From Bdellovibrio reynosensis (GTDB lineage: Bacteria > Bdellovibrionota > Bdellovibrionia > Bdellovibrionales > Bdellovibrionaceae): 64,000 nucleotides of DNA. How positions within the stretch are numbered: the stretch's first letter is position 1; the number at the start of each line of letters is the position of its first letter. Position numbers and translations under genes: made by a program. The DNA lies in assembly GCF_022814725.1 (NCBI RefSeq), contig NZ_CP093442.1, positions 1,674,001 through 1,738,000 of the forward strand. The letters are read 5' to 3'. A model generated the notes under the pieces. The model saw only the letters and a list, made by a program, of their open reading frames with translations, had not been told where the DNA came from and ran no database searches. Positions 33,378 to 53,543 of this stretch are shown piece after piece.

Positions 33378-33407
33378 TTGACAACAGGCCCATCTTTTAT
33401 TTATTGT
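33378..33407 (+). promoter_or_regulatory. Probable sigma-70 promoter of tRNA-Pro
   Basis: Perfect -35 TTGACA (33378-33383), an 18-nt spacer and -10 TATTGT (33402-33407), ending 11 nt before the mature tRNA 5' end. Confidence 0.65.
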
Positions 33408-33418
33408 CCTGGCCTTGT

Positions 33419-33495
<77 letters not shown>

Positions 33496-33636
33496 TTTTC
33501 TAACCTACTTTAGGTTCTCTTCTCTAAAATAAGCACAACAGACATCGATTTTAAAAATACGCAGGTTAGGTCCGAACCACGTTAAACGCAGTTAACCTCA
33601 TTCAAATTCGTAAAAATATATAAAAAAAGTGATCTT

Positions 33637-33669
33637 AATGTCCCAAACATACCCTTTGCTCGGCATAGG
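33637..33669 (+). promoter_or_regulatory. Two-block promoter motif upstream of the sigma/XRE/peptidase operon
   Basis: AATGTCCCAAA (33637-33647), 10 nt, then GCTCGGCATAGG (33658-33669), ending 21 nt before the sigma-factor start codon. The same two blocks with exactly the same spacing occur at 35782-35814. The layout fits a -35/-10 pair of an alternative sigma factor. There is no dyad symmetry, which argues against a repressor operator. Confidence 0.72.
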
Positions 33670-33690
33670 TAGTATTTAAGAGGGATATTA

Positions 33691-34266
33691 ATGAAAGAAC
33701 GTAACATCCATTTACTAGAAAAAACGGCCACGCCACAAAGTTACGCCTCTAGCGAGGAAGTGGAGTTCGCCGTTCGAGCACTAACACCAGGTGATCGCAA
33801 AAAACTTCTGCTTTCAGCGCGGTTCTGGTGGCGAAAGTTTGGCCTGCACTACTCTGAACTCCAGCCCGAGGACCTCTTACAAGAAGCAGTCTGTCGCGCA
33901 CTAAGTGGAGATAGAAAGTGGCCCAAGCACGTCTCCTTTATCAAGTTCATTAGCCAGACAATCAAAAGTATTGCTGGCCACCACCGCACAAGCAGAGAGT
34001 CTGAGCTAGATCGAATCAACCAAAAGATCACTGACGGATCAAGCGATCAAGACTCTAAGATTGACGCTGCCGCTGAAGTTGAAAAGATTCGTATCTTTTT
34101 TGGTGAAGACACTCAAGGTTTTGAAGTTCTAAAGTTGAAAGCTGAAGGACTTGATGGCGTAGAGATTATGGAAGCCCTCGAACTCGATGAAAAGGAATGG
34201 GAAACCGTTCGAAAGAGGGTTCAAAGAAAGGTCGCTAAATACATAGCAAGCAAAGAGGAGGAGTAA
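33691..34266 (+). CDS. ECF-like RNA polymerase sigma factor
   Basis: 191 residues. Region 2-like segment about 35-110: ARFWWRKFGLHYSELQPEDLLQEAVCRAL is the helical core, with KFISQTIKSIAGHHRTSRESE as the DNA-contact end. Region 4-like helix-turn-helix about 130-190 (FEVLKLKAEGLDGVEIMEAL, then WETVRKRVQRKVAKYIAS). Length and layout match small ECF-type factors. It is first in a tight operon with the XRE protein (1 nt gap) and peptidase (3 nt gap). The shared promoter motif upstream of this operon and of the ubiquitin-like operon makes it the likely activator of both. Confidence 0.8.
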   Translation: MKERNIHLLEKTATPQSYASSEEVEFAVRALTPGDRKKLLLSARFWWRKFGLHYSELQPEDLLQEAVCRALSGDRKWPKHVSFIKFISQTIKSIAGHHRTSRESELDRINQKITDGSSDQDSKIDAAAEVEKIRIFFGEDTQGFEVLKLKAEGLDGVEIMEALELDEKEWETVRKRVQRKVAKYIASKEEE

Positions 34267-34267
34267 A

Positions 34268-34852
34268 ATGAATAACAAATCAAATAACAAAAAGCCTTCG
34301 CCTCAATCAATCTTACAAGCGTTTGAGAGCTTTGCATTTGAGGCAACTGAAAAGGAACTCGATGAAGCCCTCACTGCGGCAGGTGAAGATCCAAAGAGTA
34401 TACTAAAAGCTGCTGATTCAGCGATTGCTCGCGCACTTGCCGAGGCAGGTAGGATATCTTCGAAAACCGAGCCAAAGATTCAAAACCAAAAGGCTCTTCA
34501 TGAGGGCCTTCGAACTATCATAACCCTATTGAGACGCAAGAAAGGCATTAGCCAAGAAGAATTAGCAGCTTTAGCAAGAATAAATCTCAGTGATGTACGG
34601 AATATTGAAACGGATGACTATTTCACCCCAAGTCCACGAACTGTCTATCAACTTGAACAGTTTTTTGAGCTTGAGCCTCGATCATTGGTATTGATGTCAG
34701 GCACAGTATCTAAACACTCTTCAGGATTTACTGATCAAATAGTTAAATTTGCCGCTCACTCAAAAGAGATAGGAAAGTTAAGTTCAGAAGAAAAGAAACT
34801 CCTAAATGACTTTGTTAAGTTTCTTTCAAATGAACTTAAAAAGCGCGGATAA
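34268..34852 (+). CDS. XRE-family helix-turn-helix protein
   Basis: 194 residues. The middle (about 77-140) is an XRE DNA-binding domain: LLRRKKGISQEELAALARIN is the helix-turn-helix, followed by NIETDDYFTPSPRTVYQLEQ. Before it lies a helical region of about 65 residues (SILQAFESFAFEATEKELDE) and after it another ~50-residue helical tail. By analogy with ImmR/ImmA pairs it may be a repressor or anti-sigma cleaved by the peptidase downstream; this is inference. Ribosome site GAGGAGG ends the sigma gene. Confidence 0.85.
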   Translation: MNNKSNNKKPSPQSILQAFESFAFEATEKELDEALTAAGEDPKSILKAADSAIARALAEAGRISSKTEPKIQNQKALHEGLRTIITLLRRKKGISQEELAALARINLSDVRNIETDDYFTPSPRTVYQLEQFFELEPRSLVLMSGTVSKHSSGFTDQIVKFAAHSKEIGKLSSEEKKLLNDFVKFLSNELKKRG

Positions 34853-34855
34853 CTA

Positions 34856-35770
34856 ATGAAAAATCCTACAGTCGGTAAACATGAGGCAGAGGACTTAAAG
34901 AAGATTGTTGAGAAAGTTATAAAGGGTCTTGGAAATCCAAAACCACCCCTTGACTTGCGTGACGTGCGAGAGCTACTTAAGCTCGACGTACGATATTATA
35001 GCAGTACAAATGACAGCTTTCTTCAGGAGACTATTAGTCGAATGAAAATTGCTGGAAAGCAGATCATTAAGCGTCCTTCGTTATTATTGGACGTCGTGAA
35101 AAAAGCAAAGCTCTCAGCACTTTGGATTCCTGATCATAAGCGTATTTTAATCGATGAAAGCACACCCAAACTAAAACATCGATGGTTTGAAGGTCATGAG
35201 ATTGGCCATGGGCTAGCCCCATGGCATAAACTATTCCTATTTGGCGACAACCAGGAAACACTGGGCCAAGGGTGCCACGAACAGCTGGAGGCAGAAGCAA
35301 ATTTTGCAGCGGGGCAACTTCTATTTCTTCAAGATCGTTTTGTTATTGAAGGGAATGACAATCAAGCCAACATGAAAACGGTTCTTCAACTTTCAGAAGT
35401 TTTTGGAAATACAAAAACTTCCACGCTTTGGCGTTTTGTTGAAGAATGTCATGAAGACAAGTTTCTGGTGGGGGTAATTTCCCAACACCCTCACCATCCT
35501 AAAAATGACTTCGATGCGCTAGCACCAATCAAGCATCTGGTTGAATCACCTGGATTCAAAGAACAGTTTGGTAATATCAATGTCTTTAATCTCTTTGCAT
35601 CGATCAAAAAGTATTGTTCTCGCAACAAAGGCGGCCCATTGGGAACGGCGATGATACGCCTTCTCGATGTGAACGGCGATGCTCATGACTTCCGCTTCGA
35701 AAGCTTTTCAAATTCTTACGAATGCCTGACCTTAGGAGTTTACGTTCGTAAAGTCGGAATTATTTTTTAA
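34856..35770 (+). CDS. ImmA/IrrE-family metallopeptidase
   Basis: 304 residues. Zinc site HEIGH at about 114-118 in WFEGHEIGHGLAPWHK, with the third ligand in EQLEAEANFAAGQLLF (about 142-157), the gluzincin pattern of ImmA/IrrE. The last ~140 residues (SVKT-type start at LSEVFGNTKTSTLWRFVEEC) form the C-terminal domain common in this family. Members cleave XRE repressors after DNA damage or a signal (ImmA of ICEBs1, IrrE/DdrO). Direct neighbour of an XRE gene, so that gene's product is the obvious target. Confidence 0.88.
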   Translation: MKNPTVGKHEAEDLKKIVEKVIKGLGNPKPPLDLRDVRELLKLDVRYYSSTNDSFLQETISRMKIAGKQIIKRPSLLLDVVKKAKLSALWIPDHKRILIDESTPKLKHRWFEGHEIGHGLAPWHKLFLFGDNQETLGQGCHEQLEAEANFAAGQLLFLQDRFVIEGNDNQANMKTVLQLSEVFGNTKTSTLWRFVEECHEDKFLVGVISQHPHHPKNDFDALAPIKHLVESPGFKEQFGNINVFNLFASIKKYCSRNKGGPLGTAMIRLLDVNGDAHDFRFESFSNSYECLTLGVYVRKVGIIF

Positions 35771-35781
35771 TTTTATTCATC

Positions 35782-35814
35782 AATGTCCCAAATCCTCCAA
35801 TAGCTCGGCATAGG
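35782..35814 (+). promoter_or_regulatory. Two-block promoter motif upstream of the ubiquitin-like operon
   Basis: AATGTCCCAAA (35782-35792), 10 nt, then GCTCGGCATAGG (35803-35814), ending 47 nt before the multi-ubiquitin start codon. Both blocks and the spacing match the site at 33637-33669 exactly, while the spacer bases differ. Confidence 0.72.
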
Positions 35815-35861
35815 GTTATAAATAAACGATCTTCACTAAGAGGATCTAACTTGGAGGTGTC

Positions 35862-36320
35862 ATGAAAGACATTGAAGTAACGAAACAGAAAACTCGTATC
35901 CACATCGACAGGGAAGAATTCGAGTCCAAGAATCCAACAACTGGAAAGGCGCTCTACAAGCTTGCCGACATTCCAGACAACAGAGAACTGTTCAAATCTG
36001 TGACTGGCGATTCTGAAGACTTTCTTATCTCGCGCGATGACCATGAAGTAGTCCTTCACGAGGACGACCACTTTTACACTCAAAAAGAAGTTCCGATCAT
36101 TGTGAACGGTAAAAGGAAAGAGACAGTCCAGTACGACTTATCTTTCGATGAACTCGTGAAACTAGCATTCGAAAATCCACCATACGGCCCCAATACACTC
36201 TTTACAATTACATATCGTAATGGTCCCAAAAAGAATCCCGAGGGCACACTCACGGCTGGTCACAGCGTAAGAATCAAGAAAGGAATGGTGTTCAATGTCA
36301 CAGCAACTGATAAATCGTAG
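35862..36320 (+). CDS. Multi-ubiquitin-domain protein (two tandem ubiquitin-like folds)
   Basis: 152 residues. Two beta-grasp units in tandem: about 10-70 (TRIHIDREEFESKNPTTGKA ... EVVLHEDDHFYT) and about 74-152 (VPIIVNGKRKETVQYDLSFD ... GMVFNVTATDKS). The pattern matches the bacterial multi-ubiquitin family. There is no C-terminal Gly-Gly; it ends TDKS like other family members, so conjugation through a classic diglycine is not evident. GGAGG sits 6 nt before the ATG. It overlaps the E1-like gene by 26 nt. The family occurs with E1-like and DUF6527 genes in scattered bacteria; I know of no settled function. Confidence 0.85.
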   Translation: MKDIEVTKQKTRIHIDREEFESKNPTTGKALYKLADIPDNRELFKSVTGDSEDFLISRDDHEVVLHEDDHFYTQKEVPIIVNGKRKETVQYDLSFDELVKLAFENPPYGPNTLFTITYRNGPKKNPEGTLTAGHSVRIKKGMVFNVTATDKS

Positions 36321-37491
36321 TTCGGACTTAAAGCGCCTTCAAGACGAGGGCTATGAAATTGAAATTCGCGCCAACCACCTACTCGTTAAGAACGTTCCTT
36401 ACCTGACCTCCAGAAAGGAGGTCAGACTTGGAGTTCTAGTCTCAACTTTGACTCTAGCAGGCGACAAAACAACGATTCCGGATGACCATCAAACCCACTT
36501 CCAAGGTGAGGTTCCATGTCATGAAGATGGCTCTCCCAACGGTAAGATCTTGAATCAATCGGCCCGAAGAACTCTCGGCAACGGAGTCGAAATTGACCAT
36601 TCATTTTCCGCTCGTCCAAAAGAGAACGGAGGTCGCTACCTAGATTATTACGACAAGATTACTACGTACGTAGCAATCCTCGAAGGGCCTGCTCAAACTG
36701 TTGATCCGTCGGCTACCGCCAAAACTTTCTCTGTCATTCCAGCGGAAACAACTTCCATCTTCAAGTACGTCGATACCGCGTCAAGCAGAGCTGCAATTGG
36801 CGCGGTCACGGACAAACTAAGAACAGGAAAAATTGGCATCATTGGTCTTGGTGGTACGGGCTCCTACATCTTGGATCAAATTGCAAAAACACCAGTCGAT
36901 GAAATCCATTTATTCGATGGTGACTTATTTCTTCAGCACAACGCCTTCAGATCGCCGGGCGCACCTTCGATCGACACACTGTTGAAAAAGCAAAATAAGG
37001 CCGAGTATTTTGGCGAGATCTACTCGATGATGCGAAATGGAATCGTAGTTCATCCTTACGAGGTCAATAGTACTAACTTAGATCACCTTAAAGAGATGAC
37101 TTTTGTCTTTATCGCTATCGACAATGGCCCCGCCAAGCGAACTATTATCGAGGCTTTAGAGGCATGGAATATCCCCTTCATTGATGTCGGTATGGGAGTA
37201 TATTTAGCCGAGGATAAGGTGGGCGGTATTCTAAGAGTCACAGCGAGCTCCCCGGCCATGAGAAATCATGTGCACGAAAAAGGGAGAATTTCATTCGGTG
37301 CCGCTCACGAAGAAAATGAATACAATCGAAATATTCAAATTGCTGATCTCAATGCATTGAATGGCATTTTGGCCGTCATCAAGTGGAAAAAAATGATGGG
37401 GTTCTACCTTGATTTTGAGAACGAATACTTCAGCACCTACACCATTGACGGAAATCATTTGAATAATGAGGACAGTGACAATGAAATCTAA
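36295..37491 (+). CDS. E1-like ThiF-family adenylyltransferase with N-terminal DUF6791 domain
   Basis: 398 residues. N-terminal domain (about 1-150) of the DUF6791 type, thought by others to have an E2-like relation; C-terminal ThiF/MoeB/E1 Rossmann domain (about 165-390): GIIGLGGTGS (181-190), acidic FDGD (207-210), HNAFR with N216 and R219, Lys 231-232, D276 in AIDNGPAK. The protein has one cysteine only, C75 in GEVPCHEDG, within the N-terminal domain. There is none in the usual E1 catalytic-Cys position. So it probably activates the ubiquitin-like protein by adenylation, and any thioester must form on C75 or on another protein. Confidence 0.87.
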   Translation: MSQQLINRSSDLKRLQDEGYEIEIRANHLLVKNVPYLTSRKEVRLGVLVSTLTLAGDKTTIPDDHQTHFQGEVPCHEDGSPNGKILNQSARRTLGNGVEIDHSFSARPKENGGRYLDYYDKITTYVAILEGPAQTVDPSATAKTFSVIPAETTSIFKYVDTASSRAAIGAVTDKLRTGKIGIIGLGGTGSYILDQIAKTPVDEIHLFDGDLFLQHNAFRSPGAPSIDTLLKKQNKAEYFGEIYSMMRNGIVVHPYEVNSTNLDHLKEMTFVFIAIDNGPAKRTIIEALEAWNIPFIDVGMGVYLAEDKVGGILRVTASSPAMRNHVHEKGRISFGAAHEENEYNRNIQIADLNALNGILAVIKWKKMMGFYLDFENEYFSTYTIDGNHLNNEDSDNEI

Positions 37492-37906
37492 CACTACCCT
37501 CAGGCACGAATTCGTTGAATTCGTGCCTGATCATTTGGAGCCGAATATTCTATACATCTCGATGATATACGCCACGGCTTCTCACTTGTGCTGCTGTGGC
37601 TGCGGAAGCGAGGTTGTCACACCGCTCACCCCAACAGACTGGCGCTTAACTTTCGATGGAACCACCGTGTCACTCGACCCCTCAATTGGGAATTGGAGCT
37701 TTCCTTGCCAGTCCCACTACTGGATAACTCGCAGTAGAACTAGATGGTCAAATCATTGGTCAAAAGAAAGAGTGAATTTTTCTAGGGCGATTGACTCTAA
37801 GAGAAAGCAGGACTTCTACGAAAAAGAAAGCTTAACCTCCAGCACACCATCCAAATCAAAAGCCAAAGAGAATTGGTTGTATCGAATCCTTCAATGCCTT
37901 AGGTAG
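37481..37906 (+). CDS. DUF6527 protein, ubiquitin-like operon partner
   Basis: 141 residues from the ATG at 37481, which has GAGG about 9 nt upstream; the ATG at 37466 is an alternative. Overlaps the E1-like gene by 11 nt. The DUF6527 signature is complete: HLCCCGCGSEVVTPL (about 36-50, four Cys), VSLDPSIGNWSFPCQSHYWI (about 63-82). Residues after ~105 are Lys/Ser-rich and less conserved. The Cys/His cluster could bind zinc or supply a catalytic Cys (C76 or C37-C41), so this is a candidate transferase or protease for the pathway. Followed by a strong terminator. Confidence 0.85.
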   Translation: MKSNTTLRHEFVEFVPDHLEPNILYISMIYATASHLCCCGCGSEVVTPLTPTDWRLTFDGTTVSLDPSIGNWSFPCQSHYWITRSRTRWSNHWSKERVNFSRAIDSKRKQDFYEKESLTSSTPSKSKAKENWLYRILQCLR

Positions 37907-37907
37907 A

Positions 37908-37935
37908 AAGTAGCCTGATATTGGTCAGGCTACTT
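37908..37935. terminator. Bidirectional Rho-independent terminator
   Basis: 11-bp perfect stem AAGTAGCCTGA / TCAGGCTACTT with a TATTGG loop, between the DUF6527 gene and the convergent 615-residue gene. It closes the ubiquitin-like operon at three genes. Confidence 0.85.
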
Positions 37936-37938
37936 CCA

Positions 37939-39786
37939 TTATGCGCATCCAACCACCCAGAAATCCGCAGTAACGGCGCGTGCAGAAGCTTGGGTTGAAA
38001 ACAACAGACTACGTAATTGAACCGCCCCGAGTGATTGCGGGGTGGCGCCGGGCATATTAGCTGGAAGCTGAGTCGCCCTTTGTGTGACGTGAGGCTGCAC
38101 AATTAAAACTTCGTATTTGGTGTCAGCCGGTAGACACATAAGCAAAGAGTAAAAGTCGAATCGATCGCCCTGAGGAGGACTATTTGTTTGTAAAGGGTCA
38201 TTCCAAAGTGGGCGATCCGGATCGAATATTCTATCTTGAATTCTTTCTACTAGGATCGATCTATCGATGTAACGAGCATTTTTGATGGCTTGACCACAAA
38301 CGACTTCAAACGGCCCTGCAACCATTTGTCTTCTTATTGAAGACGACTTAGCTCCCTTTATGTGGATGAGCGTGACTTTGACTTGATTCGTTGCACTCGG
38401 ATTGGCTGGGTAATAGAGGTGCACGAAATCAGCAATTTCCCCGGCATCATCATCGCAGAACAGCCACACATCTGAAGAATTCGACAGTGGCTTCAATCCT
38501 AGTGTGTTGGCGCCTTGAGCTGTACTAACAGTACTTACCAACCATGTAAACAAACTATCCTCATTGGGATTACTCCAAATCAAACTTAAATTGTTCGCAT
38601 CAGGTTTCTCTTTCTTAATGTCAACAGCGATGGATAACCGCCCATTATTTCTTGTGAAATTCGCCCAACGCCAGGAGGAAAAATTCTGGTCTTTTGTATT
38701 CGATATCGCCAATGCTCCGGCAGAAATCGTATGTCCAGATTCATAAAAGACTCTAAAGAGCTCAGGAAAGTCTGCCAGGGCATCCAAAATGGGAATATAA
38801 AGACTATTTGCCACGGGGGGGGCCGCCGTCATTTGAAAAAAGACATCGGTAGAATGCTTTTGAAACTTTGGTTCTAGATGAATTTGTATTGCCGCTCTTG
38901 TCGAGCCTCGATGCTGAATTTTCAGATGGAAACAGCAACTATTCTGATGTGAACAAGGCGCTGTCTCAAAGTTAAATAGAGAAATTAAGTTTTCTGCTTT
39001 TTCAATTCTTCTTCCAGAAAAAGCTTCCGGTGGCCCTACTTCAAAGTCAAATACCCCACTAACGCCATTAAAGTCTGAAAGCTCACTAGCTAAAACTGGC
39101 AATTGCCCATGCGATTTTGCATTTGCACGAAGGCTCTCAAATATTTTATCTAAACCATTAGCAAATTCGTCCAGATTCTCATGTGAACGAGTCCATACAA
39201 CAGAACTCCTGAGTGCCACGCCCATATCCTTCACCCTTGCAGCGGAAGCCAAATATGTTGAATCTGCCAAAGGATCTAATGCACACTCTAAATTTCTTCC
39301 ACTTAATACTTTAGAGTCCGCCTTAACATCGACCACTTTATGTGTTCCACTCATCCAAATCGCCTTTAATTGCGAAGTTGTTAAAAAGGCTTTAATAAGT
39401 TCTGCTGACGGAATTTTTCTTAATACTTGCAGCGTCTTATTCTGAACTAATGAATTTAGAATAAATGCTCGGTGAGCAGTATTAGAAGTGTAAATAGCCA
39501 CAAAATTAGCACTAACTGAGATAAGAACTAATTCATGTAATCTGTTTTTATTGACACTGCTCCAAGAACATTCTTCGTTTACAATGTATGAAAAGCCTTG
39601 AATTCGGATTTCATAAAAAAATTGCTCAGGAAAGTTTTCTATCTCGCCGATTGACTCGCCCAATTTTTCTTTAAAGATCTCTACCACTGCTTTCACGATC
39701 TCAATGTGTTTTGAATCGGAAATATCTTTAGAGTTTTGAAGCACCAGAACAGACCCATAGGGTGTAACTAAATGCGGCTCAGGCAA
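37939..39786 (-). CDS. Large orphan protein, candidate PD-(D/E)xK-like nuclease
   Basis: 615 residues, no family recognised. The start is uncertain: TTG at 39786 is used here, and a CTG a little upstream follows an AGAGG. The N-terminal ~300 residues are mixed alpha/beta with no motif I can name. The C-terminal part contains DDDAGEIADF (445-454), LIHIKGAK (473-480) and GQAIKN (498-503): an acidic strand, a [H]xK strand 22 residues later and a Gln another 22 residues on. That spacing fits a PD-(D/E)xK nuclease core with His in place of Glu/Asp. It is convergent with the ubiquitin-like operon across a terminator, so a shared role is possible but not shown. Confidence 0.6.
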   Translation of the reverse strand: MPEPHLVTPYGSVLVLQNSKDISDSKHIEIVKAVVEIFKEKLGESIGEIENFPEQFFYEIRIQGFSYIVNEECSWSSVNKNRLHELVLISVSANFVAIYTSNTAHRAFILNSLVQNKTLQVLRKIPSAELIKAFLTTSQLKAIWMSGTHKVVDVKADSKVLSGRNLECALDPLADSTYLASAARVKDMGVALRSSVVWTRSHENLDEFANGLDKIFESLRANAKSHGQLPVLASELSDFNGVSGVFDFEVGPPEAFSGRRIEKAENLISLFNFETAPCSHQNSCCFHLKIQHRGSTRAAIQIHLEPKFQKHSTDVFFQMTAAPPVANSLYIPILDALADFPELFRVFYESGHTISAGALAISNTKDQNFSSWRWANFTRNNGRLSIAVDIKKEKPDANNLSLIWSNPNEDSLFTWLVSTVSTAQGANTLGLKPLSNSSDVWLFCDDDAGEIADFVHLYYPANPSATNQVKVTLIHIKGAKSSSIRRQMVAGPFEVVCGQAIKNARYIDRSILVERIQDRIFDPDRPLWNDPLQTNSPPQGDRFDFYSLLMCLPADTKYEVLIVQPHVTQRATQLPANMPGATPQSLGAVQLRSLLFSTQASARAVTADFWVVGCA

Positions 39787-39937: not shown

Positions 39938-41248
39938 CTAAAATGTTACCTTTTTTACCCTGCGCTCTGGCGACGATATATTGCAATCTTGCCTGCGCTC
40001 TCTTTCGATCTCTTCATTTAGGTGAACATATCTCTCGGCGATGCGTTCACTTTGACCTAATACTTCTGCCGAAACCGTCTTATCTCCTTGGCATCTTTTT
40101 GTTAGCTCGGTGGAAAATGTGTGGCGAAGAGAATGGACATCCGCGCCGGCTTTTATTTTACCTTTCGATCTCAATTCACATAACACTTTGTACATTTGCG
40201 CATATGTAAATCCGAAAATCAGATTATCTTGCTTGGCACATTTTTGTTCTTTAAGTCTGCGGGAAACTAAGGTCGCAAGCTGTGTCGCAGTTTCTTCGTC
40301 AATTAGCGGAATATAGCGATTGTATTCAGGTGCAATCTCGTCGCGAGCCTTCAGTGGACCTCTCGGAACTTTTCGCTTGGAATCATATAGCGATTCCAAC
40401 TCTGGCTGATCAGTCAGAAGAATATAGCCATAAATTGAATACCCTGCCTCGGCAATTCTTTTAAATAAAGCTCGCTTAGCTTCTGGAACTGATCCGAAAG
40501 TAAAGGAGCCCACGTGAAGACCCAGCTGCTCATTAACCCTCATGCCACTCTGGGATAGAAGTTTGAAAAACAAACTGTATAAATCGCCATTCTCGCCAGC
40601 TGTAACAGCGTCATGGCTATTTGAAATCAATTTTTGTATTTCTCCATCTGTATATAGGTCTTCTAATCCCCGACGATCTGCCTTACCTGTTTTAAACTCC
40701 TTGCAACGGGGGAACGGACCCATGTAGTGCTCTTCCTCCATAAACTTCATAAATGAATTCAGCGCTTTTATGCAATTATTCCGGGAGTTCGTACTTAGCT
40801 TCTTGCTAATTTTAAGTGCAGGCGCTTGCTTCAAAAAATTTCTGAATTCTTTATAGTTTTTTGGCCAGGTTTCTATATTGTTCAGACCTTCGCGATTAAT
40901 AAAATAATAGAAAACGTAGTTTTTCACATTCGACAGATATGACTCTACTGTTGCTCTTTTCAGAGTTTCTTTTATCCAAATGACGTATTCATCACTTAGC
41001 TTATCAAAATCAGAATACTTCTTCTGCCAAGCAATTCGATCAGCTGCCTCCGTCATACGAGCGTCAATCTTACCTAAAATTCTACCGCGCTCTTTTTTTG
41101 CACTCTCTAGTGTTCGAATGTTTTCAGGCCAACCTTGCTTAAATCCAAATCTAGTCGTCTCTTGCGTTTTTCGGTCATGATAGATAAATCCAGTGAATCG
41201 ACCATCAGCTGATATTCTGAATCCTTCGAGCGATCTCTGCTTAGCCAT
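39938..41248 (-). CDS. Tyrosine recombinase (integrase)
   Basis: 436 residues. Core-binding domain about 85-190 (DFDKLSDEYVIWIKETLKRA ... CIKALNSFMKFMEEEHY). Catalytic domain about 205-420: Arg I in LLSQSGMRVNEQLGLHV, HxxR in DVHSLRHTFSTEL, nucleophile Tyr in ERIAERYVHL. The usual His/Trp before the tyrosine is replaced by the GQSERIAERY context. The ATG at 41248 has GAGGTG upstream. It overlaps the downstream half of the split recombinase by 8 nt, so they are one transcription unit. It is the only intact recombinase and the best candidate for island excision. Confidence 0.88.
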   Translation of the reverse strand: MAKQRSLEGFRISADGRFTGFIYHDRKTQETTRFGFKQGWPENIRTLESAKKERGRILGKIDARMTEAADRIAWQKKYSDFDKLSDEYVIWIKETLKRATVESYLSNVKNYVFYYFINREGLNNIETWPKNYKEFRNFLKQAPALKISKKLSTNSRNNCIKALNSFMKFMEEEHYMGPFPRCKEFKTGKADRRGLEDLYTDGEIQKLISNSHDAVTAGENGDLYSLFFKLLSQSGMRVNEQLGLHVGSFTFGSVPEAKRALFKRIAEAGYSIYGYILLTDQPELESLYDSKRKVPRGPLKARDEIAPEYNRYIPLIDEETATQLATLVSRRLKEQKCAKQDNLIFGFTYAQMYKVLCELRSKGKIKAGADVHSLRHTFSTELTKRCQGDKTVSAEVLGQSERIAERYVHLNEEIERERRQDCNISSPERRVKKVTF

Positions 41249-41666
41249 TCGCTTCACCTCTAAGCATATTTACAAAATTTAAAATATCTTTTTGGAGATC
41301 CTTAGAATAACCATTCAATAGTAATTTAAGCGCATCCTTTGGCAGCCCTTTTAAGATATCAATTCCCCCAATTTTTTCGATTACGCTTAATATCGTTTCA
41401 TGGGACGACTTAGAGGCCCTAAGTTCGATTTCGATATGCTCGTTTTTTCCGGTCCCAACAGAACCCTTGTTTCTTTTATCTTCCGCCAATTGTGCAGAAA
41501 TTTTTTTCTTATTTAGCTGATGAGACTCGTCGGTGTCTTTATTCGCATAGTGCTTTTCTACCATTCTAATTGAATTCAAAAGTAGATCAGCCGCCATGCG
41601 CGTACCATCATCAAAATTCCAGTCTACGTGACTTGCAACTATCGTACGGATGCATGCCATCCCCAT
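41241..41666 (-). pseudogene. C-terminal part of a split tyrosine recombinase
   Basis: 141 codons open from an ATG at 41666 that lies inside the end of the preceding 636-codon frame. Its first residues, read in continuity with that frame through a -1 shift at 41651, give HAIRTIVASHVDWNFDDGTR and then LLLNSIRMVEKHYAN, that is HxxR, a helix and the nucleophile Tyr. So it is the missing catalytic end of the larger frame. It can be a frameshifted pseudogene, a -1 programmed frameshift product, or a separately translated subunit started at the internal ATG. Confidence 0.7.
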
Positions 41667-43549
41667 CCAGTTTTGGAAGGAGAAAATAGGCGGGTTTCTT
41701 TCCAGATCGCATAGTCTTCAAATCTAGGAAACAGTAGGTGAGCACGTTCAGGGATGGAGCTAGTATATGCAGGCCGAATTTCGTCTACATATCTTCGAAG
41801 TACGTCATATGTTTTAATCTTTCCAGCCGATACCAAATCTAACAAATACAATTCGCATGATGGTTTTTTATCGTGACTAAATCGTTTATTTTCATATCTG
41901 CCATTTTTTAAAAGCTGCTTTGGAAATTCAACTCTCACAGTTTTTTTGACATGATCGAACTTCAACCATTCAATTCTAAAATCGGAAAAGGATTTCTTTC
42001 TTAGAGGGAAACTTCCTAGAAAAACATATAAAGCATATCTTAGCTCCAATGCTTTACTTTTAACTGCCAGGTCAATATGCTTTCTCAAGTTTTCGAGGAA
42101 TCCAATGTATTCCAACATCGGCATTTTTGGGGTATTGAATTCTCGAATGAACAAACCGGTATTTTCTTCCTCGATACGATCTTTTAGGCCGTTCTTAAAC
42201 TTTCGTATTTGTTTAAAAATTGTGCGACACTTCTCGATCCACTCCGCTGATGATAAATTTTCTCGGTCAAACAAAGCCTGCGACTGAGTTACAAAACCAT
42301 GGGTAGTATTAAACATATTATCCAAAATCTGAACTGGCTTCTCTACCGTCCTCGTAACAAACTCTGACGTGGCCTCCCCATCTAACAATCTTCTTATGTT
42401 CGTACGTTTCAGAACGAACTCTTCATAAGCGCGAATATTTTCGATTTTCGCCAACTCACAGAAGTCCAAAGTCTGAAGGGTGTAGCCCATTCCCCTACTC
42501 GCATCTTGAAGCATCTGATTTGTCACACCAAAAGGTTCAAAGTTTTGCTTGGATTTATTCCAAACTGCCAAATCTAAATCGGTCCCGTTTTTCGGAAGAC
42601 AAAGGAAACCAGCATAGACCTCAAGTTGAATAACTGCCGCTTTTTCTGTTGGGTATCGTCCTTGAAGATCGGGAGTCCATCGCGTCGTTCTCTCTAAATC
42701 TGTATCTTTTGCTTTTTTATAGGTGGCATAAGCCGCAAACTGTTTGAACAAGTTCGGTGCATCTTCTAGGCACATCCGATATTTCATATCTCGATTCAAC
42801 AACCAAAGTTGTTCTCCTCTGACCGTTTTCGAATGTGTGATCCTTTGTGCAACCAATTCGGTCAATGTCCCAGCAGGAATATCCAATGCCTCTTCAATCT
42901 TTTCTATAAGTGGTATGGACTCTGAAGAAGGACGCTGATGACAGATCTCCCAATGAGAAAATGTACTGTTGGGTTTTCGACCAACGGCCACGGCTAGCTT
43001 CGACGTCGTAAATCCTTTTAGTGTCCGGATTCGCTTTAGGCGTTCAGCAAATGTAGGAGCTTTTAAAGCGTCCTCAAGTGAAAACACCTTTTGATAATAC
43101 AGCGCTACAGCTGAAACGTGTGAGGCGACGGAGGCATCTTTTCCATTGTTCTTAAGCCATGTGCGAAACTTCTTTATATTTTTGTCCCATACAACTCCCG
43201 TCAATGCCGTGCCGATTTCTGAATTTTCTCCAATCTTTAGAAAATCTCGAAAGAATACCACGAAGGAGGCTTTCCTATTTGCAAACAAGTTCGTTCCTTT
43301 GAACTCTGGATTTTCGGTTTTTTTGACTTCAATTTCTTTCGCTACAACTGACTCGTATGAATTTATCAATTCGACATATTTCATTTCTTCTAACCTCAAC
43401 TTTCTAAAGGTGGGGTACGAGAGAAATGCTGAATGATTGATTCTGCTGTTTTGGTATGGAGCTAAACGCAAATTCCTAGTGGGAACTTCTGACTCAGAAG
43501 AGACAGTGCGATAACTTCTTGAAACTGTTTGTTGTTTTTCAAAAATCAT
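41639..43549 (-). CDS. Large tyrosine-recombinase-like protein with inserted XRE domain, ends before its catalytic motif
   Basis: 636 residues. A unique N-terminal region, then an XRE helix-turn-helix at about 165-230 (RLKRIRTLKGFTTSKLAVAV, PSSESIPLIEKIEEALDI). The C-terminal part (about 500-625) has a recombinase-like Arg-containing helix (ALELRYALYVFLGSFPLR), the strand pair IEWLKFDHVKKTVRVEF and a PKQLLKNGRYENKRF segment, then stops at GWGWHASVR. The stop falls within the HxxR box and the rest is in the -1 frame downstream. The size and neighbour integrase recall multi-recombinase transposons such as Tn554 (TnpA/TnpB), by analogy only. Confidence 0.65.
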   Translation of the reverse strand: MIFEKQQTVSRSYRTVSSESEVPTRNLRLAPYQNSRINHSAFLSYPTFRKLRLEEMKYVELINSYESVVAKEIEVKKTENPEFKGTNLFANRKASFVVFFRDFLKIGENSEIGTALTGVVWDKNIKKFRTWLKNNGKDASVASHVSAVALYYQKVFSLEDALKAPTFAERLKRIRTLKGFTTSKLAVAVGRKPNSTFSHWEICHQRPSSESIPLIEKIEEALDIPAGTLTELVAQRITHSKTVRGEQLWLLNRDMKYRMCLEDAPNLFKQFAAYATYKKAKDTDLERTTRWTPDLQGRYPTEKAAVIQLEVYAGFLCLPKNGTDLDLAVWNKSKQNFEPFGVTNQMLQDASRGMGYTLQTLDFCELAKIENIRAYEEFVLKRTNIRRLLDGEATSEFVTRTVEKPVQILDNMFNTTHGFVTQSQALFDRENLSSAEWIEKCRTIFKQIRKFKNGLKDRIEEENTGLFIREFNTPKMPMLEYIGFLENLRKHIDLAVKSKALELRYALYVFLGSFPLRKKSFSDFRIEWLKFDHVKKTVRVEFPKQLLKNGRYENKRFSHDKKPSCELYLLDLVSAGKIKTYDVLRRYVDEIRPAYTSSIPERAHLLFPRFEDYAIWKETRLFSPSKTGWGWHASVR

Positions 43550-53288: not shown

Positions 53289-53293
53289 CGTTT

Positions 53294-53312
53294 CGGGGAG
53301 ATAGGATTCGAT
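53294..53312 (-). repeat. Inverted fragment of the tRNA-Pro 3' region
   Basis: Read on the minus strand, 19 nt match the T-arm and acceptor strand of tRNA-Pro (tRNA 33473-33491). Just downstream on the plus strand, GGGTCGTGGGTTCG resembles the tRNA variable/T-arm bases (13 of 14). From there to 53,440 the sequence is GC-rich with GCGCCACGACGGCGC-type hairpins that weakly recall the family A core. A decayed tRNA or attachment-site remnant is likely. The 53,313-53,543 stretch holds no supported gene. Confidence 0.6.
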
Positions 53313-53543
53313 CCTTCGGTCATACCCGGGTCGTGGGTTCGCTCACCTTAGCGGGATGCAAACGTGAGGGTGCCGGAGGCAGTCCGAACAGGACCGAGCG
53401 CCACGACGGCGCGAGCCCCATCCTCGCGCTACCAAAAAACGTTGGTTATCAACAATCTCCCGGTCCAAATTTTTATTCGACAGACGCCTTTAAAGACAAA
53501 TCACGTTACGATATTCAAGTAAGCAACTCGTAGGAGCAGCATC

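What the first reader, a model, noticed from the sequence alone, without database searches (positions are those of the whole stretch)
33637..35814. Identical two-block promoter motif before the sigma-factor operon and the ubiquitin-like operon
AATGTCCCAAA-N10-GCTCGGCATAGG occurs at 33637-33669 and 35782-35814 with exact conservation of 23 positions and the 10-nt gap, while the spacers differ. I saw no third copy by eye. The first site precedes an ECF-like sigma factor gene, the second a multi-ubiquitin/E1/DUF6527 operon. The likely reading is that the sigma factor autoregulates itself and switches on the ubiquitin-like genes. Neither block is palindromic, so a repressor operator is less likely.
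Basis: partly seen in the sequence, partly recalled or inferred. Interest (0 to 1): 0.88.

Follow-up and report, generated by a model that had tools for sequence, protein, structure and literature searches.

The report
Sigma-factor switch for immune operons
The repeated DNA motif is very probably a promoter read by the small sigma factor encoded beside it, and the same sigma-plus-protease cassette with matching promoters sits next to CBASS anti-phage operons and bacterial ubiquitin-like operons in unrelated bacteria, which points to a little-described on-switch for bacterial defence.

Summary
In detail: AATGTCCCAAA-N10-GCTCGGCATAGG occurs exactly twice in the 3.58-Mb genome, with no near copy. 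The reading as a sigma-specific promoter is strongly supported by comparison. 35 loci carry a homologue of this sigma-like gene, usually followed by a ~140-aa protein and an ImmA/IrrE (M78) metallopeptidase. Blind dyad enumeration upstream of it returns TGTCC-(16-19)-GCATA as top motif. Sites usually come in pairs, one pointing at the sigma gene, the other at an adjacent operon that is often Bub (multi-ubiquitin) or CBASS. A matrix trained without the window ranks the two window sites first and second of 64 kb. Sites of one locus share locus-specific variants beyond chance. Ubiquitin-like and CBASS loci without the sigma gene, even with a related peptidase, lack the motif. Best explanation: an ECF-like sigma factor drives its own operon and the ubiquitin-like operon; the middle protein restrains it and the CapP-like peptidase removes the middle protein after a stress signal, perhaps ssDNA. 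Promoter recognition is well supported; anti-sigma role, cleavage and signal are inferred. I found no description of such a sigma-based immune controller in the held library, though key papers are not held. New variant of a known kind.

The parts
33637..33669 (+). Site 1: promoter-like two-block motif (-35-like TGTCCCAAA, -10-like GGCATAGG; TGTCC to GCATA gap 19) before the sigma operon
   Evidence: exact match; top-2 site of 64 kb with a matrix trained on other loci only
33691..34266 (+). ECF-like sigma factor, 191 aa, regions 2 and 4
   Evidence: NCBIfam TIGR02937 E 3.7e-4, below its cut-off; profile hit to SigH E 0.012; predicted model aligns to sigma2 (5uxx, Z 8.0) and sigma4 (4cxf, Z 7.5), nearly all top rows sigma factors
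34268..34852 (+). Middle protein, 194 aa: N-terminal segment alignable to the ~140-aa middle proteins of other modules, then an XRE-type HTH; proposed anti-sigma and peptidase substrate (inferred)
   Evidence: HTH_19 E 3e-8, residues 87-139; alignments A3, A8; 37% identical to the planctomycete middle protein
34856..35770 (+). ImmA/IrrE (M78, CapP/PprI-like) metallopeptidase, 304 aa, HEIGH motif
   Evidence: Pfam M78 E 0.022, below cut-off; ~50% identical to plasmid proteins annotated ImmA/IrrE; profile A2 best PDB hit CapP 7t5t E 7e-14; H114 E115 H118 E145 conserved
35782..35814 (+). Site 2: same motif before the ubiquitin-like operon, directly after the peptidase gene
   Evidence: exact match; rank 1 of 64 kb in the held-out scan
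35862..36320 (+). Multiubiquitin protein
   Evidence: PF14452 E 2e-17
36295..37491 (+). E1-like enzyme: DUF6791 + ThiF
   Evidence: PF20590 E 1.7e-56, PF00899 E 1.2e-12; NCBIfam NF004805 E 2e-165
37481..37906 (+). DUF6527 protein
   Evidence: PF20137 E 1.1e-24

Best explanation
The two sites are promoters of a dedicated ECF-like sigma factor encoded at 33691-34266. TGTCCC is the -35-like and GGCATAGG the -10-like element. One site drives the sigma / middle protein / peptidase operon (positive autoregulation), the other the multiubiquitin-E1-DUF6527 operon. The cassette is a self-contained controller: in the resting cell the middle protein holds the sigma factor inactive; on a stress signal, most likely DNA damage or single-stranded DNA by analogy with CapP and PprI, the metallopeptidase cleaves the middle protein, the sigma factor is freed, amplifies its own operon and turns the ubiquitin-like operon on. 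SHOWN by sequence comparison: the motif, its pairing and direction, its dependence on presence of the sigma gene, sigma-like fold, gene order. INFERRED: sigma-motif binding, anti-sigma role of the middle protein, its cleavage, the ssDNA signal, and defence as the purpose of the ubiquitin-like operon.
For: (1) Blind dyad enumeration in upstream regions of 25 non-redundant sigma homologues gives TGTCC-(16-19)-GCATA as top dyad, 9 of 25, shuffles at most 4. (2) Held-out matrices: the two window sites rank 1 and 2 of 64 kb on both strands (21.1, 20.8; next 14.5); in 12 of 19 loci the top two sites of the fetched stretch are the pair, in 17 of 19 the top one belongs to it. (3) In most loci one site points at the sigma gene and one at the neighbouring operon, gap 18 or 19. 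(4) Sites of one locus share variants (window TGTCCCAA, L012 TTCTGAA, L011 GCCTAG, L042 GCTTTATA): 269 matches against 220.9 +- 6.5 after permutation, 0 of 20,000. (5) Controls: 13 Multi_ubiq matches of the same phylum without a sigma homologue have no site; six Bub/CBASS or related loci with a related HTH + peptidase but no sigma have none either. (6) The middle proteins of most sigma loci have no HTH recognised by Pfam in those tested, yet the motif is there, so the sigma factor is the only predicted DNA reader common to all. (7) Planctomycete plasmids L014/L055 repeat the window layout with both sites. (8) Peptidase profile hits CapP and IrrE; PprI and CapP act with ssDNA (PMC10904395).
Against: No transcription start, binding or expression data. 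The window sigma protein matches no Pfam model and only weakly NCBIfam's sigma family; structural Z 7-8 alone is not decisive. The window peptidase is below Pfam's cut-off and finds no PDB relative on its own. The middle protein has no confident model (pLDDT 54), so an anti-sigma role is unsupported structurally. Part of the within-locus similarity of sites may reflect shared composition or promoter duplication: spacers are also slightly more alike within loci (0.367 against 0.276; blocks 0.868/0.752 and 0.740/0.582). A few loci (L010, L013, L014) have off-target sites that score as high as or higher than the expected ones.
Confidence: 0.78

Rival explanations
1. The motif is the operator of the XRE-type middle protein (CapH-like repressor) that is cleaved by the peptidase, and the sigma-like protein plays another role.
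For: The window middle protein has a clear HTH; CapH+CapP is a known HTH/peptidase repressor pair next to Bub and CBASS operons (PMC13373217).
Against: Most motif loci have a middle protein without recognised HTH (alignment A8). Sister loci with a related HTH and peptidase but no sigma gene lack the motif. The motif is directional, non-palindromic, with fixed 18/19-nt block spacing and variable distance between facing sites.
Confidence: 0.08
2. Sigma-promoter reading is right, but the circuit is not a protease-released sigma factor: the middle protein and peptidase act on another target, or the sigma factor is controlled by its own synthesis only.
For: No direct evidence links middle protein and sigma factor; the middle protein model is of low confidence; some sigma homologues (L051, L052) have only a short next gene and no annotated peptidase.
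Against: Fixed gene order sigma-middle-peptidase in most loci over several phyla, often with overlapping genes; CalpS/CalpT/CalpL shows such a sigma / anti-sigma / protease trio in an immune system (PMC12751052).
Confidence: 0.2
3. The two sites are recombination or attachment sites linked to the tRNA-Pro gene and the integrase: GTCCCAAA is the reverse complement of part of its anticodon loop.
For: tRNA-Pro at 33419-33495 contains TTTGGGAC; a tyrosine integrase lies at 39938-41257.
Against: Only 8 nt agree; the motif recurs as TGTCCGA...GCATAGG beside sigma homologues on plasmids in other phyla.
Confidence: 0.01
4. Chance repeat or recent local duplication without function.
For: Two copies only.
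Against: Spacers and flanks differ; 0 expected by shuffling; both copies predicted by a matrix that never saw the window.
Confidence: 0.01

Closest known systems
CapH + CapP (HTH repressor + ssDNA-activated peptidase; controls CBASS and Bub operons)
   Same: Peptidase profile best matches CapP; the window middle protein has an XRE-type HTH; adjacent Bub/CBASS operons (PMC13373217 on CapH+CapP; here)
   Different: Here a sigma factor is added as a positive regulator; most middle proteins have no recognised HTH; the DNA element is a directional promoter, not an operator
CalpL-CalpT-CalpS of type III CRISPR (Lon-SAVED protease, anti-sigma factor, sigma factor; PMC12751052)
   Same: Proposed logic: immune signal, protease, anti-sigma loss, sigma release
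   Different: Protease family differs (M78 metallopeptidase, not Lon); no SAVED sensor; controls a neighbouring operon through a defined promoter; homology of the middle protein to CalpT not tested
CapK + CapS and CapW/BrxR (DNA-damage-responsive controllers of Bub, CBASS, BREX; PMC13373217)
   Same: Small controller cassettes swapped between immune operons; autoregulation plus control of the neighbour
   Different: Both described as repressors; no sigma factor
PprI/IrrE-DdrO of Deinococcus (PMC10904395)
   Same: M78-type peptidase with HTH substrate; ssDNA-stimulated cleavage
   Different: DdrO is a repressor; no sigma factor
ECF sigma factors (e.g. SigH, RpoE, CnrH)
   Same: Two-domain sigma2/sigma4 architecture, autoregulation, -35/-10-like promoter pair
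   Different: Divergent sequence below curated cut-offs; cytosolic peptidase partner; TGTCC/GCATAGG promoter, which I do not recognise as that of a described ECF group (own knowledge, not tested)
Bub operons (bacterial ubiquitination-like; PMC13373217)
   Same: Multiubiquitin + E1-like + DUF6527 genes
   Different: The window operon has no separate E2 gene among its three genes

Membership tests
ECF sigma factor | sigma2 and sigma4 domains only | tested here: met
   Model residues 20-111 align to sigma2 of RpoE (Z 8.0, 2.9 A, 83 residues), 125-189 to sigma4 of CnrH (Z 7.5, 2.0 A, 61 residues); nearly all top rows sigma factors. Sequence scores stay below curated cut-offs
ECF sigma factor | recognises its own upstream promoter | tested here: inconclusive
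   Motif upstream of homologues, held-out prediction and within-locus similarity; no biochemical test possible
CapH+CapP controller | M78 peptidase of CapP type | tested here: met
   Profile A2 hits CapP at 7e-14; HEIGH and distal E conserved; the window protein alone finds no PDB relative
CapH+CapP controller | HTH repressor that binds the controlled promoter | tested here: inconclusive
   HTH present in the window but motif presence follows the sigma gene, not the HTH; binding itself not testable here
CapH+CapP controller | ssDNA-activated cleavage of the partner | not testable with these tools
   needs protein biochemistry
CalpL/T/S-like sigma release | middle protein binds and inhibits the sigma factor | not testable with these tools
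   no complex prediction available; monomer model pLDDT 54
CalpL/T/S-like sigma release | Lon-SAVED protease | tested here: not met
   the protease here is M78-type
Bub operon | ubiquitin-like protein with E1 | tested here: met
   PF14452, PF20590 and PF00899 in adjacent genes
Bub operon | separate E2 gene | tested here: inconclusive
   none among the three window genes; neighbours such as L049/L050 have one; whether an E2 is required was not checked in the literature

The most novel reading that the evidence does not exclude
[quoted passage not shown] its sensor half (HTH + peptidase) is also found joined to another output (RHH + GNAT) in sister loci.
Probability: 0.6. Interest if true: 0.85.

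Novelty: new variant of a known kind. Interest (0 to 1): 0.78.

Why it matters
The known controllers that couple DNA damage to immune-operon expression (CapW/BrxR, CapH+CapP, CapK+CapS) are described as repressors (PMC13373217). A sigma-based activator with positive feedback would behave as an amplifying switch, and its promoter is a readable tag: the matrix can be used to list targets of each such sigma factor, including uncharacterised operons. It also gives a concrete, testable trigger for Bub operons, whose role in defence is not shown. The modular exchange of sensor and output parts would show how immune controllers evolve.

Tried and rejected
Sigma alignment A1 was too diverse to scan genome contigs; a narrower alphaproteobacterial set was used, giving 10 loci, so the locus set is biased to alphaproteobacteria. 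No phage record encodes the window sigma factor. The middle-protein fold was too poor to search. Attachment-site, palindromic-operator and chance readings were considered and rejected (see rivals). A sigma-70 consensus scan of 33400-38000 found no more than shuffles give (6 against 6.6 +- 3.4) and none at the two sites on the + strand. Library searches for a described sigma factor / ImmA-IrrE / CBASS or Bub controller found none, but several papers are not held (one looked up: PMC4678834), so priority is uncertain.

Full report
OBSERVATION. The two copies are exact and at the stated coordinates. With up to three mismatches no further copy exists in the window (0 in 100 shuffles) or the 3.58-Mb genome. 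In 23 other genomes of the genus the best match has two mismatches. The -10 ends lie 21 and 47 nt before the start codons of the sigma-like and multiubiquitin genes; ribosome-binding-like sequences (GAGGG, GGAGGTG) lie between.

GENES. 33691-34266 is a 191-aa sigma-like protein (TIGR02937 E 3.7e-4, below cut-off). A profile of five homologues matches SigH at E 0.012. The predicted model (pLDDT 78.5) aligns to sigma2 of RpoE and sigma4 of CnrH in the right order, and nearly all top-ranked chains are sigma factors. Alphaproteobacterial homologues hit Sigma70_r2 (best E 2.8e-4) and some are annotated sigma-70 family. 34268-34852 carries an XRE-type HTH. 34856-35770 is an M78-type peptidase: weak in Pfam (E 0.022), but about 50% identical to annotated ImmA/IrrE proteins, with HEIGH and a distal conserved E; the family profile finds CapP first, E 7e-14. 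Then come Multi_ubiq, DUF6791-ThiF E1 and DUF6527.

THE MODULE RECURS. Homologues of the sigma protein were found in 4 other genomes of the phylum among 369 searched, in 33 plasmid records and in 10 loci from a scan with an alphaproteobacterial query. The usual order is sigma, a 115-155-aa protein, ImmA/IrrE peptidase. Adjacent operons include Bub-type genes (window; L015; L049; L050; L054; L013, L053 by reading; planctomycete plasmids L014/L055), CBASS (L011 cyclase + 2TM effector, L019, L020, L042), an E2-E1-JAB protein with patatin (L012) and genes of unknown role.

THE MOTIF TRAVELS WITH THE SIGMA GENE. Without any motif as input, all 5-mer dyads in the upstream regions of 25 non-redundant loci were counted: TGTCC-(16-19)-GCATA came first (9 of 25); shuffles reached 3 or 4. 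The refined consensus is TGTCCGA-N-cGCATAGG with TGTCC-to-GCATA gap of 18 or 19. In divergent loci one site points at the sigma gene and the other at the neighbouring operon. In 428 kb of fetched loci 51 sites reach 17 bits and roughly nine in ten lie at module promoters (the matrix was trained on many of them). The non-circular test leaves each locus and its clade out: trained on 34 sites from elsewhere, the matrix ranks the two window sites first and second of 64 kb (21.1 and 20.8 bits; third 14.5); the pair fills the top two places in 12 of 19 loci and one of the pair holds the top place in 17 of 19.

LOCUS-SPECIFIC VARIANTS. The two sites of a locus are more alike than sites of different loci: 269 matches against 220.9 +- 6.5, 0 of 20,000 permutations, and 250 against 206.5 +- 6.4 without the window. 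By parts: -35 block 0.868 against 0.752, -10 block 0.740 against 0.582, spacer 0.367 against 0.276. The spacer effect shows that composition or shared history contributes, but the blocks differ more strongly. Variants such as TTCTGAA (both sites of L012) or GCTTTATA (both of L042) are what matched sigma-promoter evolution predicts.

CONTROLS. Thirteen Multi_ubiq matches of the same phylum have no sigma homologue within their ~3-kb loci and no site. Sister modules on plasmids carry a related HTH + ImmA/IrrE pair, about 50% identical in the peptidase, joined to a ribbon-helix-helix protein and a GNAT-like protein, facing Bub, CBASS or related operons (L062-L067). They have no sigma homologue and no motif between the divergent genes (best scores -7.4 to 2.4), but AGCTA/TAGCT repeats in most. 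So the motif follows the sigma gene, not the ubiquitin-like operon, the HTH or the peptidase. Distances between facing TGTCC blocks vary (6 to 178 nt), which argues against a palindromic operator.

COLLINEAR SUBTYPE. The planctomycete plasmids resemble the window most in layout: sigma, XRE-type middle protein (37% identical), peptidase (42%), then the ubiquitin-like operon, with one site before or at the start of the sigma gene and one right after the peptidase gene.

MECHANISM. Shown: motif, direction, pairing, association with the sigma gene. Inferred: the sigma factor reads the sites; the middle protein is its inhibitor; the peptidase cleaves it on a signal. Precedents are CalpL/CalpT/CalpS (protease, anti-sigma, sigma; PMC12751052) and CapP/CapH and PprI/DdrO (M78 peptidase, HTH partner, ssDNA; PMC10904395, PMC13373217). 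The conserved L-T-x-A-A-R stretch near the end of most middle proteins is a candidate cleavage region, untested. Bub operons have not been shown to defend against phage (PMC13373217), so calling the window operon immune is an inference from association.

NOVELTY AND LIMITS. PMC13373217 lists CapW/BrxR, CapH+CapP and CapK+CapS as the DNA-damage controllers of immune operons; no sigma factor is among them, and my searches found none. The library is partial, and the authors may have counted some of these cassettes as CapH+CapP. The locus set is biased to alphaproteobacterial plasmids. I rate it a new variant of a known kind.

Noticed in passing
L062-L067 (plasmid loci): Sister controller: ribbon-helix-helix protein + GNAT-like protein + HTH + ImmA/IrrE peptidase, mostly divergent from Bub, CBASS or related operons, with AGCTA/TAGCT repeats between the divergent genes in most.
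   Followed up: partly
window 33419-33495 and 53291-53314: tRNA-Pro (TGG) lies directly upstream of the module; a 19-nt copy of its 3' end (TCGAATCCTATCTCCCCGA) lies at 53291-53314 in inverted orientation. Possible island boundary remnant.
   Followed up: no
window 39938-43549, - strand: Tyrosine recombinase gene with two further genes of unknown family downstream of the ubiquitin-like operon, suggesting a mobile island.
   Followed up: no
window 37939-39786, - strand: 615-aa protein with no confident family (only DUF790-like E 0.058), convergent with the ubiquitin-like operon and without the motif.
   Followed up: no
L016, L017, L018, L036-L039: Small ORF of about 90 aa (MIYAINYDLKxPGQ... where read) recurs as first gene driven by the outward site in several loci; SinR/Cas2-like from memory, not tested.
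   Followed up: no
L013 7405 (-), L014/L055 about 5010/4980 (+): High-scoring motif copies outside the two expected positions; could be extra promoters or chance.
   Followed up: no
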